Assembly: GCF_025641885.1 (NCBI RefSeq)
Contig: NZ_JAOTQN010000002.1
Coordinates: 1 to 64,000 of the forward strand
Source of the DNA: Pyrobaculum sp. 3827-6
GTDB taxonomy: Archaea > Thermoproteota > Thermoprotei > Thermoproteales > Thermoproteaceae
Reading direction: 5' to 3'
DNA length: 64,000 nt
The notes under the pieces are model-generated. The model did not search any database. It had not been told where the DNA came from and saw only the letters and a list, made by a program, of their open reading frames with translations. Shown here piece after piece: positions 14,301 to 60,825 of this stretch. Made by a program: the position numbers and the translations under genes. Positions within the stretch are counted from its first letter, which is position 1; each line of letters starts with the position of its first letter.

Positions 14301-15331
14301 GAATTAACGATTGGCGTACGTCAAGCCGCGCCGAACTCGCCTTTGTTAATTCCAATCTTTATTTTTGGAACCGATCTCGGCGTCTTCTTCTTTCAATTGT
14401 CATGGTATTTTGTTAATTCTAAATCTATCGGTGACGCCGTGTAGGTATGTCGGATACTTTTCCTGATCTTTCGTCGGATGTACTTCCTGAATCAGGTAGA
14501 TTGTCCGACGTGAAGTCAGGAAGTGCGTATGTGGGAGAGTTGAACTGAGTAATTCAGCTCATGGAGCATCTCGGCGCCTCCCACGTTGTGGGTACCTCGT
14601 TGCGCTGGGCGACGTTGCGTCTGTAGACGCTGTTTTTTTCGGTGAGTTTCGGCACCGCATTTTTCCATACCCCGCCAATCGCATCACGGAAGTGCCGCCA
14701 GACAGCGGGCGCCCCCCCCCGGCGCCTAGCTGTATCACGGAGGCGGCGAGCCGTGGCTTGGGCTGGGCAACGGTCCGGCTCTTCTCCATACCCTGGATGG
14801 CATATACATGGACCGGCGGGAGGTGGTGTGTAGGGGCTGACCGGAGTGGTTCCCCAGGGATCTCGCTGTTGAGTGTGTGAGGCTGGCCGGGAACCATGGC
14901 GCTAGAGGCGTAAGGCACGCCTTCGACGGCTGGCGACACTCATGTGCGCCATACATCGAGCTCTAGCCCCTTTTCCAAAACTATTCACGCGCCTTTCTAC
15001 TCATGGGCAGGGAGGTGTGCAGAAAACCGCTTCGCAAAGCTTCTGGAGGTGGCGAAGGTGGCCGTGCAGTACGGCGCCTCGTTACATGTATACGGAGACA
15101 GTTTCGTAGTTGAAGACAGAGTGGGGCCTAAAGCAACGGCAACTCTTTAAATTCACTTTTTCCTCTCTTCGTGACGAGCCGGGACTACGCCGGACGAGGG
15201 CGGCGGACGCCGCGCTGTGAATCCGGCGGGGCACCGCCCCGTCCTATTTGTCGCGTTTTACGTTGTATCTCCGCCGCTGTGTGCGAATCAGGAGTATGCA
15301 AACCATATATATCCCGGCACAGCGGCGTTTG
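14301..15331. other. Intergenic stretch without a convincing gene
   Basis: About 1 kb with short open frames on both strands but none with a good start, promoter and family signature. A GTC-GGA/TCC-GAC rich stretch with short inverted repeats (CTTCCTGA and TCAGGAAG) lies at about 14450-14530. A coding-like tail, FAKLLEVAKVAVQYGASLHV, is readable at about 15030-15090 on the plus strand and ends with a stop at 15150; it may be a gene remnant. The last 30 bases hold the promoter of the protease gene (ATATATAT at 15305-15312). Confidence 0.4.
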
Positions 15332-57099: not shown

Positions 57100-58212
57100 A
57101 TGGATGTAAAGTCGGCCAGGTCGCTTGGGGCAGAGCTCGTGGGTAAGCTCCCTTGGCAGGAGGTGGCGGATTCCCCCACCATTAGGTACTACACCGACTG
57201 GTCTAGGTTTGAGGGGTTTAAGCGCCTGGAGGAGGCGCCGAGGGTTGAGTTGCCTGTCTCTGGCTGTGAGGTTGTTGTCTACAACGGCGTGTTGCTGGGG
57301 GCTGGGAGGTGCGGGGGGGTGGAGGTGGGGGTCGCCGACGACGTGTTTAAAGAGGTGCAGATAAACAGCAAGATATTGGCCCTGCACGCCGCGGCGCTTA
57401 TAGAGCCCGTGTCTGTGAGGGTGAGGGGCTCGGTAGGCCCCCTGGTGGTTAAGTTGCTGGCCTCTGAGAGGGGGGTCCACGTGGCTAGCCACGTCGTGTT
57501 GGATATCGACAGCGCCGCCTCGGGCTCTGTGGTTATCTACGTCGAGGCGGGGGAGGGGGTGATGCACACCGCCGTGGTGGAGGGGGTGGCCGGCGGCGGT
57601 GTGGAGTATGTGCTTGTGTCTAGGGGCGGGGGGCCTCAGTACGTCCACTCGGCGCTTTCCGTGAGGAGCGCCCTCTACGCGAGGCCCTTGGTGATGGGGG
57701 GCGTGATGAACTCTGTGAGGGAGGAATATGTGACGGGGGAGGGGGCCTCTGTTGAGGTGGTGGGTCTTGAGCTGGGCACCGGCGCCTCTAGGCTTGACCA
57801 CGTGGTTTCTGTGATAAACGACGCGCCTAGGGGTAGGGGCTATGCCCGGCTCTACGCAGTGGCGGCGGACAAGTCGTTTGTTACGCAGAGGGCTGTGGGC
57901 CGCATCACGAAGCAGGGTGTTGGTAGCGACAGCGCGGTGGAGGGCGTGGTGTACATAGCGGGGGAGGGGGCCGTCGCCAACACCCAGCCCATCATCCTGG
58001 TGGAGACTGGCGAGGTGGAGGGGGCTAGGCACTCTGCCGCCGACGCCGCGCTGGACGAGGAGAGGGAGTACTACCTCAGAGCCAGGGGGGTGAGGAGGGG
58101 GGATCTGCCTAAGTTGCTCATTGCGAGCTTGATAGATCAGTATCTCTCGTCGCTGTCGGAGCAAGCCCGGGGTTTTGTAGAAGAGGTTGTCAAAGCCTCG
58201 GGCGTGCTCTAG
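57100..58212 (+). CDS. SufD/SufB-type Fe-S assembly protein
   Basis: About 370 residues of right-handed beta-helix character. The C-terminal signature DSAVEGVVYIAGEGAVANTQP, GARHSAADAALDEEREYYLRARG (about 304-326) and GFVEEVV matches SufD/SufB scaffold partners; a Ser stands near the usual His/Cys site. The SufBC partners are not in the window. ATG 57100 lies about 26 bases after CTATATTAA; an in-frame ATG at 57091 is the alternative. The 3' end overlaps tiaS tail-to-tail by four bases. Confidence 0.82.
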   Translation: MDVKSARSLGAELVGKLPWQEVADSPTIRYYTDWSRFEGFKRLEEAPRVELPVSGCEVVVYNGVLLGAGRCGGVEVGVADDVFKEVQINSKILALHAAALIEPVSVRVRGSVGPLVVKLLASERGVHVASHVVLDIDSAASGSVVIYVEAGEGVMHTAVVEGVAGGGVEYVLVSRGGGPQYVHSALSVRSALYARPLVMGGVMNSVREEYVTGEGASVEVVGLELGTGASRLDHVVSVINDAPRGRGYARLYAVAADKSFVTQRAVGRITKQGVGSDSAVEGVVYIAGEGAVANTQPIILVETGEVEGARHSAADAALDEEREYYLRARGVRRGDLPKLLIASLIDQYLSSLSEQARGFVEEVVKASGVL

Positions 58213-59456
58213 ACAATCCACCTGACGGCGCTGGGGGAGAAGAAGCTTGCGATCTCCGGCTCAACCCCGGGTGGCTTAAGGAGGTGGCGCCACTCGCCGG
58301 GCCTGGGCAGAATCAGAGCCCTGGGGGCGTAGTCGTATATCCACCTGGTGGCGGCCCGGCGGAACAGCGTGCCGCAGACGCGGCATCTCCAGCCCTTCCC
58401 AGCCCCGGCGCTTTCCAGCGAGCCTCCGCAGTAGGGACACCTCTCCCTAGCCCTCCGGTAGCGCCCGAGGATGTACGCCCTCTCTACGTATAGGTAGAGC
58501 CGCCCTCCGCGGGGCTTCAGCCCTCCGTAGAGCTCCACGTCGCACCCAACGCATCTCTCCAGTTCAGCCGCCATCCTCCCCAGATGTCTATAGACCACGA
58601 ATGGAAGGCCGCTGTCCAGCCACCCCACAAGATGCCTCCCCCCCACCCTCTTTACGCCTTGTATTATGCCCCTGGCTCTATAGAAAGAGTAGGGATAGGG
58701 CTCGTCGAAGTAGATCCCCAGCTCGATGTGGGCGTCCACGGCTTGGTTAGTCCTGTAGATAACCCAACCCGACGGCTTAAAGCCCCAGCTCTCTAAAAGA
58801 GACTCTGCGTATACGAGGTGCTGGGGGGTTAGCCCCCTCACGCCGAAGTACACGGGGTCGGGCCCCCTGGGCTCGATCAACACCCTGTTCCTGTCGACGT
58901 TGTGGAAGGTGAATGGGTAGGTGAGGGCCTCCATGGCCCTCGCCAGCTGGGGGGGTATCGGTAGCCTCTCCCCCTCCCGGTAGGCGATGAGCTCGAAGGT
59001 GGAGAGGGGGAGCTCCGCCCCCACGGCGGCGACGGCGCCTATCTTACCTCTACCGCCCCACGTCTTAAGCCCTGCGCGCTCAGCCGCGCTTACGCTGACC
59101 ACCTGCGTCAGCGCCATTCTGTATAGGACCCGCGCGCGCTCCGGCACCAAGCCGACGGCCATGGCGACTCCTGGGTCGGTCTTGCCCTCCCGCCTGGCGA
59201 GGGCTTGGACCACCTCCACGGCGAGTCTCCACAGCTCATCTACGTCGCCGGGCGGCACGTCGAGGGCAAGGGCCACGGCGGCGTTGCCCCTAGTCTTAAA
59301 CGGCACGTTGGGGTTCAGCCTAATCAGCCGGGGGAAGTCTTGGAAGGCCTCGGGGCCCCACTTCTTTAACACCTCCTTTGCAAATACGTAGCCTACATAC
59401 GTCGTGCAACCTCCCCTGTGGCTGTCCGTGTCGTCGATCCCTATGTAAACCTTCAT
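58209..59456 (-). CDS. tiaS: tRNA(Ile2) agmatinylcytidine synthetase TiaS
   Basis: Attaches agmatine to C34 of tRNA(Ile)-CAU so that it reads AUA, an archaeal modification. 415 residues: VYIGIDDTDSHRGGCTTYVG (about 3-22, kinase-like domain), FKTRGNAAVALAL, KTDPGVAMAVG, the ferredoxin-like region WGGRGKIGAVAAVGAELP, an OB-fold segment around GWVIYRTNQAVDAHIE and a C-terminal Zn ribbon CPYCGGS...CRVCG (about 358-381). The ATG overlaps the stop of the BtuF-like gene by four bases, so they are cotranscribed. Confidence 0.93.
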   Translation of the reverse strand: MKVYIGIDDTDSHRGGCTTYVGYVFAKEVLKKWGPEAFQDFPRLIRLNPNVPFKTRGNAAVALALDVPPGDVDELWRLAVEVVQALARREGKTDPGVAMAVGLVPERARVLYRMALTQVVSVSAAERAGLKTWGGRGKIGAVAAVGAELPLSTFELIAYREGERLPIPPQLARAMEALTYPFTFHNVDRNRVLIEPRGPDPVYFGVRGLTPQHLVYAESLLESWGFKPSGWVIYRTNQAVDAHIELGIYFDEPYPYSFYRARGIIQGVKRVGGRHLVGWLDSGLPFVVYRHLGRMAAELERCVGCDVELYGGLKPRGGRLYLYVERAYILGRYRRARERCPYCGGSLESAGAGKGWRCRVCGTLFRRAATRWIYDYAPRALILPRPGEWRHLLKPPGVEPEIASFFSPSAVRWIV

Positions 59457-60265
59457 CTATAGGGGCCGTACCAGGCGTCCCGCAGAGAGGGCCTCGAGAC
59501 GCTGGAGGCGCCCCCCACCCACCTCTCCCCCCTGGCAACGGCGGCGGCGAGGAGGCCCAGATCTAGGGGCAGAGAGGGGCCGTAGTGCGCCAGGGTGTCG
59601 TTTGGAGTCACCACGTACTCCCTCCCCCTCAGGAACTCCACCTCACGCTCGCTGTAGCTCCTCCCCCTGGCCTCGTAAATCACGAAGCTGGACCTTTCCA
59701 CCAACCCCAGTGGGGGCTCCTCGTAGTGCATAAAGACGCATGGGAGCCCCCCTAGATATCTCAGCCCCACCCTCGTAAGCGCGTCCGCCACGTAGGAGTT
59801 GCCGCAAGCCACGTCGTACACGCCGAGGTTAATAATCGCAAGAACGCCGTCGTACAGCGGCGCCCCCCTCAACAAATCTCGGTACACCCCGGCTAGTCTG
59901 TCCCCCTCCTCGTCGCGATCGAAAAGCCTTGCGAAGAACCTAAACACGGCAACTACCGCGTCGATATTCACAGGTGTCGGTACAGCCACAACTGCCCGAG
60001 ACACCTCCGCCGCCTTTTCTAACAAATGCCTCTGCACCGGGTAGTAGAGGATAAACAAGTCGGGGGCCAGTGCCCGCGCCCGCTCCCCGTCGAAATCTGT
60101 AAACGTGCCCACGATAGGCACCTTCATCAGCTCCCTCGGCCTGTACGAAAAGGCGTCACGCCCGACGATCTCAACGCCGAGCAACGCCAAGAACTCGTTA
60201 ACAGACGGGTTGAGACTCACAACTCTCCTAGGCACCCCGTCAACACGGCCCATCAGCAACACCAT
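59453..60265 (-). CDS. BtuF-like periplasmic-binding-fold protein, no export signal
   Basis: About 270 residues. RVVSLNPSVNEFLALLGVEIVGRD (near the N-terminus) and LAPDLFILYYPVQRHLLEKA belong to the cobalamin/siderophore binding-protein fold. The likely start, ATG 60265 (or ATG 60253), gives only MVLLMGRVDGVPRR before the fold, with no signal peptide; GATATAAAAAC is 14-26 bases upstream. It is possibly cytoplasmic with a non-transport role. The following overlapping gene is tiaS; no transporter partner is nearby. Confidence 0.75.
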   Translation of the reverse strand: MVLLMGRVDGVPRRVVSLNPSVNEFLALLGVEIVGRDAFSYRPRELMKVPIVGTFTDFDGERARALAPDLFILYYPVQRHLLEKAAEVSRAVVAVPTPVNIDAVVAVFRFFARLFDRDEEGDRLAGVYRDLLRGAPLYDGVLAIINLGVYDVACGNSYVADALTRVGLRYLGGLPCVFMHYEEPPLGLVERSSFVIYEARGRSYSEREVEFLRGREYVVTPNDTLAHYGPSLPLDLGLLAAAVARGERWVGGASSVSRPSLRDAWYGPYR

Positions 60266-60325
60266 TAACTCACAAAAACCCGATATAAAAACAAGCACAG
60301 ATATACTACAGGGGCAACCGTGTAA

Positions 60326-60336
60326 AGCTTATATCC
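60326..60336 (+). promoter_or_regulatory. TATA box of the RNase P RNA gene
   Basis: AGCTTATATCC is centred about 24 bases before the 5' strand of helix P1 (60355). Confidence 0.6.
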
Positions 60337-60352
60337 CAGCACTGCTAGAAGA

Positions 60353-60573
60353 TAGGGGCGCCGAGGGGACGGGGCTGGCTCGGAGACGGCCAGCCTCTGG
60401 AACCTCCCGCACCGCCGCGGGGAGCCTCCAGCGGGCCGCCGAGAGGCGGGGGTAAAAACCAGCTGGAGGCGCGGCCCCCAAGCAGGGCCTGTGAGGCCCG
60501 CGCGAGGCCCGGGTAGGGGGGTAGACACATACCCCAACAGAAGCGGGGGTACCCGGCGCCCCCCCTCCCCACT
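60353..60573 (+). ncRNA. rnpB: RNase P RNA, minimal (type T) form
   Basis: Catalytic RNA that trims tRNA 5' ends. Helix P1: GGGGCGCCG 60355-60363 pairs with CGGCGCCCC 60554-60562. Helix P4: 5' strand ACCUCCCGC (60402-60410, preceded by UGGA as in conserved region I) pairs with GCGGGGGU (60543-60550), leaving exactly one bulged U at 60405, the universal P4 feature. Conserved region IV ACAGAA occupies 60537-60542, directly before the P4 3' strand. The element is only about 210 bases, too short for a specificity domain, matching the reduced RNase P RNA described in Pyrobaculum and relatives. Exact ends are estimated; strand is set by the order of these elements. Confidence 0.85.
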
Positions 60574-60630
60574 GCGTTTAGCAGACAGCCAGCTCCATTG
60601 GGTATTTATAACAGATGCATTTTGATATAT

Positions 60631-60825
60631 GTGGGGCGTGTAAGGCGTTTCCCCAAGGAGGTGGCTGAAGAAAGGCTAGAGAAGATTATTATAATGTCTG
60701 CGAGGCTGGGGCGAAATGTGATTTGGCTTTCAGACGATGTATTTACGCTTAGAAGCCTCGAGCCGCATAAGAGGTACAGAGTTAGACTCGTAGAGGGGGT
60801 GTACGTCGTGGATGAGCTCCTGTAG
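60631..60825 (+). CDS. Small protein, putative antitoxin partner
   Basis: 64 residues from GTG 60631, which lies 20-31 bases after GTATTTATAACAG; TTG 60598 would be a longer, less likely start. The sequence reads VAEERLEKIIIMSARLGRNV, then strands with FTLRSLEPHKRYRVRLVEGV and an acidic end DELL. The basic/beta pattern is like small antitoxin or RNA-binding proteins, but no family was recognised. The last 14 bases overlap the nucleotidyltransferase gene. Confidence 0.6.
   Translation: MGRVRRFPKEVAEERLEKIIIMSARLGRNVIWLSDDVFTLRSLEPHKRYRVRLVEGVYVVDELL

What the first reader, a model, noticed from the sequence alone, without database searches (positions are those of the whole stretch)
60353..60573. 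Minimal RNase P RNA gene identifiable from P1, P4 and the ACAGAA core
The pairing P1 (60355-60363 with 60554-60562), P4 with a single bulged U (60402-60410 with 60543-60550) and ACAGAA right before the P4 3' strand are visible directly. The element is about 210 bases with no room for a specificity domain, matching the reduced RNase P RNA known from Pyrobaculum, which standard archaeal models miss. Annotators could leave this segment empty.
Basis: partly seen in the sequence, partly recalled or inferred. Interest (0 to 1): 0.75.

Follow-up and report, generated by a model that had tools for sequence, protein, structure and literature searches.

The report
Known minimal archaeal RNase P RNA
This is the genome's single RNase P RNA gene, the RNA enzyme that trims the front end of transfer RNAs, in the unusually small form already described from Pyrobaculum and its relatives, so it is a correct reading of an ordinary, known gene.

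Summary
The observation and its interpretation both hold. Window 60355-60562 (+) matches the truncated RNase P RNA family RF02357 (RNaseP-T) over its full length: 190 bits, cut-off 60, E 2e-42. No other place in the genome comes near; the one weak match (28 bits) lies inside a conserved ORF. Across 17 Pyrobaculum/Thermoproteus orthologues, 16 pairs change on both sides (5.5 in shuffles). I add a P6 pseudoknot (also covarying), a conserved kink-turn in P16, and an L15 GGU complementary to tRNA 3'-RCC. The ordinary archaeal model RF00373 misses it, as claimed.

RPP21 is absent from every genome that carries this short RNA and present in nearly all others of the class. Divergent RPP30, POP5 and RPP29 genes are present here. 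This is the form published in 2010 (Lai et al.): already known, low interest.

One possibly new correlate: tRNA promoters sit 26-31 nt upstream of the mature 5' ends, predicting leaders of only about 0-4 nt. Two relatives with full-size RNase P have wider spacing. Whether the 2010 paper reported this could not be checked.

The parts
60355..60562 (+). RNase P RNA gene, truncated (type T / type P) form
   Evidence: RF02357, 190 bits, full model length; only credible match in the genome; covarying structure in 17 orthologues
60328..60335 (+). TATA box CTTATATC, preceded by A-rich BRE-like TAAAG (60323-60327); starts 27 nt before P1
   Evidence: read from sequence; the best-scoring box starts at 24-30 nt in 15 of the 17 Pyrobaculum/Thermoproteus orthologues
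60355..60363 (+). P1 5' strand
   Evidence: pairs 9/9 with 60554-60562; 6 of 9 pairs show two-sided changes
60365..60366 (+). P2 5' strand in the Rfam register (GG with CC 60532-60533); a 4-bp register 60365-60368 with 60532-60535 is also possible
   Evidence: and sequence; the pairs hardly vary, so the register is not proven
60371..60397 (+). P3 hairpin
   Evidence: 3 pairs with two-sided changes
60402..60410 (+). P4 5' strand (CR-I), U60405 bulged
   Evidence: pairs with 60543-60550; invariant in 17 sequences
60412..60415 (+). P5 5' strand (pairs with 60471-60474)
60416..60421 (+). P6 pseudoknot 5' strand CGCGGG, pairs with 60497-60502 CCCGCG
   Evidence: perfect 6 bp or more in all 17 sequences; both strands changed together here and in nearest relative G065, and again in G072
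60424..60470 (+). P7 (60424-60432 with 60462-60470) enclosing two small hairpins, the remnant of the specificity domain
   Evidence: 5 of 9 P7 pairs with two-sided changes
60477..60518 (+). P15 (60477-60479 with 60516-60518) with inner loop L15; GGU at 60512-60514 is complementary to tRNA 3' RCC
   Evidence: invariant in all 17 sequences
60485..60510 (+). P16/P17 with kink-turn: C stem 60485-60489/60506-60510, bulge UGU 60490-60492, tandem G.A 60493-60494/60504-60505; candidate L7Ae site
   Evidence: sequence, conserved in alignment; same place as the L7Ae footprint in P16 of Pyrococcus furiosus RNase P RNA (PMC4245976)
60537..60542 (+). ACAGAA core motif (CR-V)
   Evidence: ACARAA in all 17 sequences
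60543..60550 (+). P4 3' strand
60554..60562 (+). P1 3' strand

Best explanation
60355-60562 (+) is the rnpB gene of this Pyrobaculum-like archaeon: a type T (type P) RNase P RNA consisting of the catalytic domain plus a stub of the specificity domain. It is transcribed from its own TATA box (60328-60335). It folds through P1-P7, P15 and P16/17, with the P4 and P6 long-range helices forming the catalytic core, and assembles with POP5-RPP30, probably RPP29, and probably L7Ae on the P16 kink-turn. It then cleaves the short 5' leaders from pre-tRNAs. Without the T-loop anchor of CR-II/III and without RPP21, it must hold the substrate through the acceptor end: the active site, and possibly GGU in L15 pairing with RCC of the tRNA 3' end. 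Shown here: identity, structure, uniqueness, protein inventory. Inferred: expression, assembly, cleavage, substrate recognition.
For: Full-length RF02357 match at 190 bits; single copy in a near-complete genome; same family above cut-off in 43 of 81 genomes of the class, all of them in the window's own family and one other family of its order, at the published coordinates for named species; two-sided changes at 16 pairs and in P6; TATA box at conserved spacing; RPP21 missing from all these genomes while RPP29, RPP30 (194.6 bits) and POP5 are present in this one. Activity of such RNAs in Pyrobaculum is reported in the literature (Lai et al. 2010, cited in PMC6565675 and PMC4919922).
Against: No transcript or activity data for this strain. 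P2, P4, P7-proximal and P15 pairs hardly vary, so they are supported by conservation, not covariation. POP5 and RPP29 assignments rest on weak profile scores (29.8 and 26.8 bits).
Confidence: 0.98

Rival explanations
1. The locus is a decayed or partial RNase P RNA copy and the working gene lies elsewhere.
For: Partial copies do occur: the nearest relative G065 has a 112-nt 3' fragment at 567 kb besides its full gene.
Against: In this genome there is one full-length match; the second (28 bits, C5:153146-153278) lies inside a 351-aa ORF and is 96% conserved in G065 as part of a 3.1 kb coding stretch, so it is chance. All core motifs are intact here. RF00373 finds nothing.
Confidence: 0.01
2. 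The structure is a GC-rich hairpin array, for example a terminator or an attenuator of the downstream nucleotidyltransferase-like gene, that resembles RNase P RNA by chance.
For: The segment is 76% GC, and GC-rich RNA in hyperthermophiles pairs easily.
Against: E 2e-42 over a full model, invariant CR-I and CR-V sequence, pseudoknots P4 and P6, and compensatory changes. No overlapping alternative Rfam match comes near its own cut-off.
Confidence: 0.005

Closest known systems
Type T (type P) RNase P RNA of Pyrobaculum, Thermoproteus, Caldivirga and Vulcanisaeta; Rfam RF02357 (Lai et al. 2010 PNAS 107:22493)
   Same: Same length, same helices, same core motifs, full-length model match at 190 bits, same family of organisms
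   Different: Only lineage differences: P6 has CGCGGG/CCCGCG where most relatives have CCGCGG/CCGCGG; junction ACCCGG before P1 3' instead of AUGCGG or ACGCGG
Ordinary archaeal RNase P RNA (type A/M), Rfam RF00373
   Same: Shares the catalytic domain: P1-P5, P15, P16 with kink-turn, P6, CR-I, CR-V
   Different: No CR-II/CR-III T-loop anchor, P8-P12 cut to a stub; model gives no match at E <= 1; organism lacks RPP21

Membership tests
RNase P RNA, truncated form (RF02357, type T/P) | Match to the family covariance model above the gathering score (60 bits) over its full length | tested here: met
   190 bits, model positions 1-208 of 208
RNase P RNA, truncated form (RF02357, type T/P) | Catalytic-domain core: P1, P4 pseudoknot with bulged U, CR-I GGAA..., CR-V ACAGAA | tested here: met
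   All present at the coordinates stated; conserved in 17 orthologues
RNase P RNA, truncated form (RF02357, type T/P) | Nearly no specificity domain (P11, P12, CR-II, CR-III missing) | tested here: met
   About 55 nt between the P5 strands, all used by P7 and two small hairpins; RF00373 finds nothing; definition as given in PMC7191817
RNase P RNA, truncated form (RF02357, type T/P) | Found in Thermoproteaceae and close kin, in genomes lacking RPP21 | tested here: met
   All 43 genomes above cut-off are in the window's own family and one other family of its order; none of these 43 has RPP21 above cut-off; literature says Thermoproteaceae lack RPP21 (PMC4919917)
RNase P RNA, truncated form (RF02357, type T/P) | Cleaves pre-tRNA 5' leaders | not testable with these tools
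   Needs an in vitro cleavage assay; reported for Pyrobaculum and Caldivirga RNAs in the literature
Ordinary archaeal RNase P RNA (RF00373) | Match to RF00373 above its cut-off of 84 bits | tested here: not met
   No match at E <= 1 in G000, whereas the control Sulfolobus acidocaldarius, Methanocaldococcus jannaschii and others ring

The most novel reading that the evidence does not exclude
Loss of the RNase P specificity domain and RPP21 in this clade went together with shortening of tRNA leaders towards zero, by moving promoters up against the tRNA genes. That would make this lineage an intermediate on the road to the RNase P-free state of Nanoarchaeum equitans. In this genome the TATA box starts 26-31 nt before the mature tRNA 5' end in 27 of 28 tRNAs, the same spacing as before protein start codons and before the RNase P RNA itself. 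In two relatives with full-size RNase P the median is 34.5-37 nt with a wide spread.
Probability: 0.3. Interest if true: 0.45.

Novelty: already known. Interest (0 to 1): 0.12.

Why it matters
For the finding itself the value is annotation: the gene is essential, short, and missed by the ordinary archaeal model, so it can be left out of a genome annotation. The organism also needs its divergent POP5, RPP30 and RPP29 genes named, which Pfam misses (POP5, RPP30) or just misses at the curated cut-off (RPP29). If the leader-length correlate holds, it offers a concrete, testable reason why an RNase P without its substrate-anchoring domain is good enough in this clade, a question described as open in PMC6565675 (2019).

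Tried and rejected
Second RNase P RNA in this genome: the 28-bit match at C5:153146-153278 lies in a 351-aa ORF conserved at 96% in the sister genome, so chance. Alternative RNA families over 60200-60700: five weak matches, all far below cut-off. First multiple alignment (A1) mixed strands and was discarded for A2. Full text of Lai et al. 2010: not held. Bacterial-type promoter and terminator scan: nothing useful, as expected for an archaeon. ARAGORN on the window: no tRNA. Two tRNA matches (C1:68705, C3:94285) were left out of the promoter statistic because the model start is not the mature 5' end: they look like tRNAs with an intron in the acceptor stem.

Full report
What is there. The segment 60355-60562 (+) matches the Rfam family RF02357, RNaseP-T, 'truncated form', over all 208 model positions at 190 bits (cut-off 60, E 2.1e-42). 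A TATA box CTTATATC begins 27 nt before P1 (60328-60335). In 15 of the 17 Pyrobaculum/Thermoproteus orthologues the best-scoring box starts 24-30 nt before P1.

More than chance. Seventeen orthologues from the two closest genera align almost without gaps. Of 57 pairs, 16 change on both sides in at least one sequence (shuffles 5.5 +/- 1.4; slid partners 3-4), and 98.1% of cells are paired. P6, which Rfam's nested structure cannot hold, is 60416-60421 CGCGGG with 60497-60502 CCCGCG. Most relatives have CCGCGG with CCGCGG, and G072 has a 9-bp version. All 17 sequences form at least 6 perfect pairs, and both strands changed together in this lineage. The apical part of P16 is a canonical kink-turn (GGGCC-UGU-GA ... 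GA-GGCCC), at the place where L7Ae footprints on P16 of the Pyrococcus furiosus RNA (PMC4245976).

Uniqueness and distribution. In the window's genome (2.30 Mb, 13 contigs, 99.99% complete) the only other match is 28 bits and lies inside a conserved 351-aa ORF. RF00373, the ordinary archaeal family, gives nothing at E <= 1. Over 81 genomes of the class, RF02357 is above cut-off in 43, all of them in the window's own family (f1) and one other family of the order (f3). A named scan adds Vulcanisaeta, Thermocladium and Pyrobaculum sp. WP30. The window's nearest relative is G065 (95.8% identity over 3.2 kb). I did not establish the species name of the window.

Protein partners. RPP21 (PF04032) is above cut-off in no genome of families f1 and f3 that carries the short RNA, and in nearly every other genome of the class. 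That includes G037, a member of the same order with a full-size RF00373 RNA. This matches the literature statement that Thermoproteaceae lack RPP21 (PMC4919917). RPP29 is present but divergent (G000:C5:142661-142795, 26.8 bits against a cut-off of 27). Pfam misses RPP30 and POP5 in this genome. A profile from relatives finds RPP30 at C5:119557-120063 with 194.6 bits, and the next, overlapping ORF (107 aa) matches a POP5 profile from Vulcanisaeta-type genomes at 2.7e-8, against 0.04 for the best of 1000 shuffled sequences. Adjacency of RPP30 and POP5 is the known archaeal arrangement (PMC4919917).

How it most likely works. The catalytic core (P1-P5, P6, P15-P17, CR-I, CR-V) is complete. The T-loop anchor of the specificity domain, which in Methanocaldococcus stacks on the tRNA elbow (PMC6565675), is missing, and so is RPP21. 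Substrate binding must therefore rest on the acceptor end. L15 keeps GGU (60512-60514), which could pair with RCC of the tRNA 3' end; PMC6565675 notes the same for P-type RNAs and calls it unresolved, because some tRNA genes lack RCCA. In this genome 13 of 28 tRNA genes inspected encode CCA after the discriminator base and 20 of 28 encode at least CC. So the GGU-RCC pairing is available in most precursors but not guaranteed by the gene.

A correlate worth testing. TATA boxes start 26-31 nt before the mature tRNA 5' end in 27 of 28 tRNA genes here (median 29). In Caldivirga (also minimal) the median is 32 with a narrow spread; in G037 and G030, which have full-size RNase P, medians are 37 and 34.5 with wide spread (Mann-Whitney own versus either below 2e-6, but Caldivirga versus G030 only 0.05). 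Protein start codons in the window peak at 26-28 nt, and the RNase P RNA at 27 nt, so the predicted tRNA leaders are about 0-4 nt. Nanoarchaeum equitans, which has no RNase P, places box A 26 nt upstream of tRNAs (PMC3491384), and Thermofilum pendens promoters are at -30 to -49 (PMC3218864). Only four genomes were measured, starts are predicted and not mapped, and the clade is a single evolutionary unit, so this is a lead and not a result. I could not read Lai et al. 2010, which may already discuss it.

Verdict. Correct observation, correct interpretation, known family. Interest is low; the value is annotation plus the leader-length lead.

Noticed in passing
tRNA genes of the window's genome (L065-L094): TATA boxes start 26-31 nt before the mature tRNA 5' end in 27 of 28 genes, predicting near-leaderless tRNAs in an organism with minimal RNase P; wider spacing in two relatives with full-size RNase P.
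   Followed up: partly
L032 3369-3548 (G065:C1:567368-567547): The nearest relative carries a second, partial RNase P RNA: the 3' 112 nt are intact up to the end of P1 while the 5' half is unrelated. The fragment resembles Thermoproteus/P. aerophilum sequences more than the genome's own gene, so it may have been brought in from outside.
   Followed up: partly
L019-L031, L034-L041: In the Caldivirga/Vulcanisaeta family and in genus g3 the P1 helix continues about 10-15 bp beyond the Rfam limits on both sides, and the TATA box lies about 40-45 nt upstream in most of them, so RF02357 cuts these RNAs short.
   Followed up: partly
window 15175-15236 (+): Pyrobac-1 RNA (RF01722, 52.6 bits), a Pyrobaculum small RNA family.
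   Followed up: no
G000:C1:68705, C2:108548, C3:94285 (L199-L201): Three tRNA genes (Asp GTC, Glu CTC, Glu TTC) that seem to carry a similar GC-rich intron inside the 5' acceptor strand.
   Followed up: partly
L198 1471-2013 and 2006-2326 (G000:C5): RPP30 and POP5 of this genome as overlapping ORFs, missed by Pfam PF01876 and PF01900.
   Followed up: yes
window 58209-59456 (-): TiaS, a tRNA-Ile modification enzyme, is encoded close to the RNase P RNA gene on the other strand.
   Followed up: no
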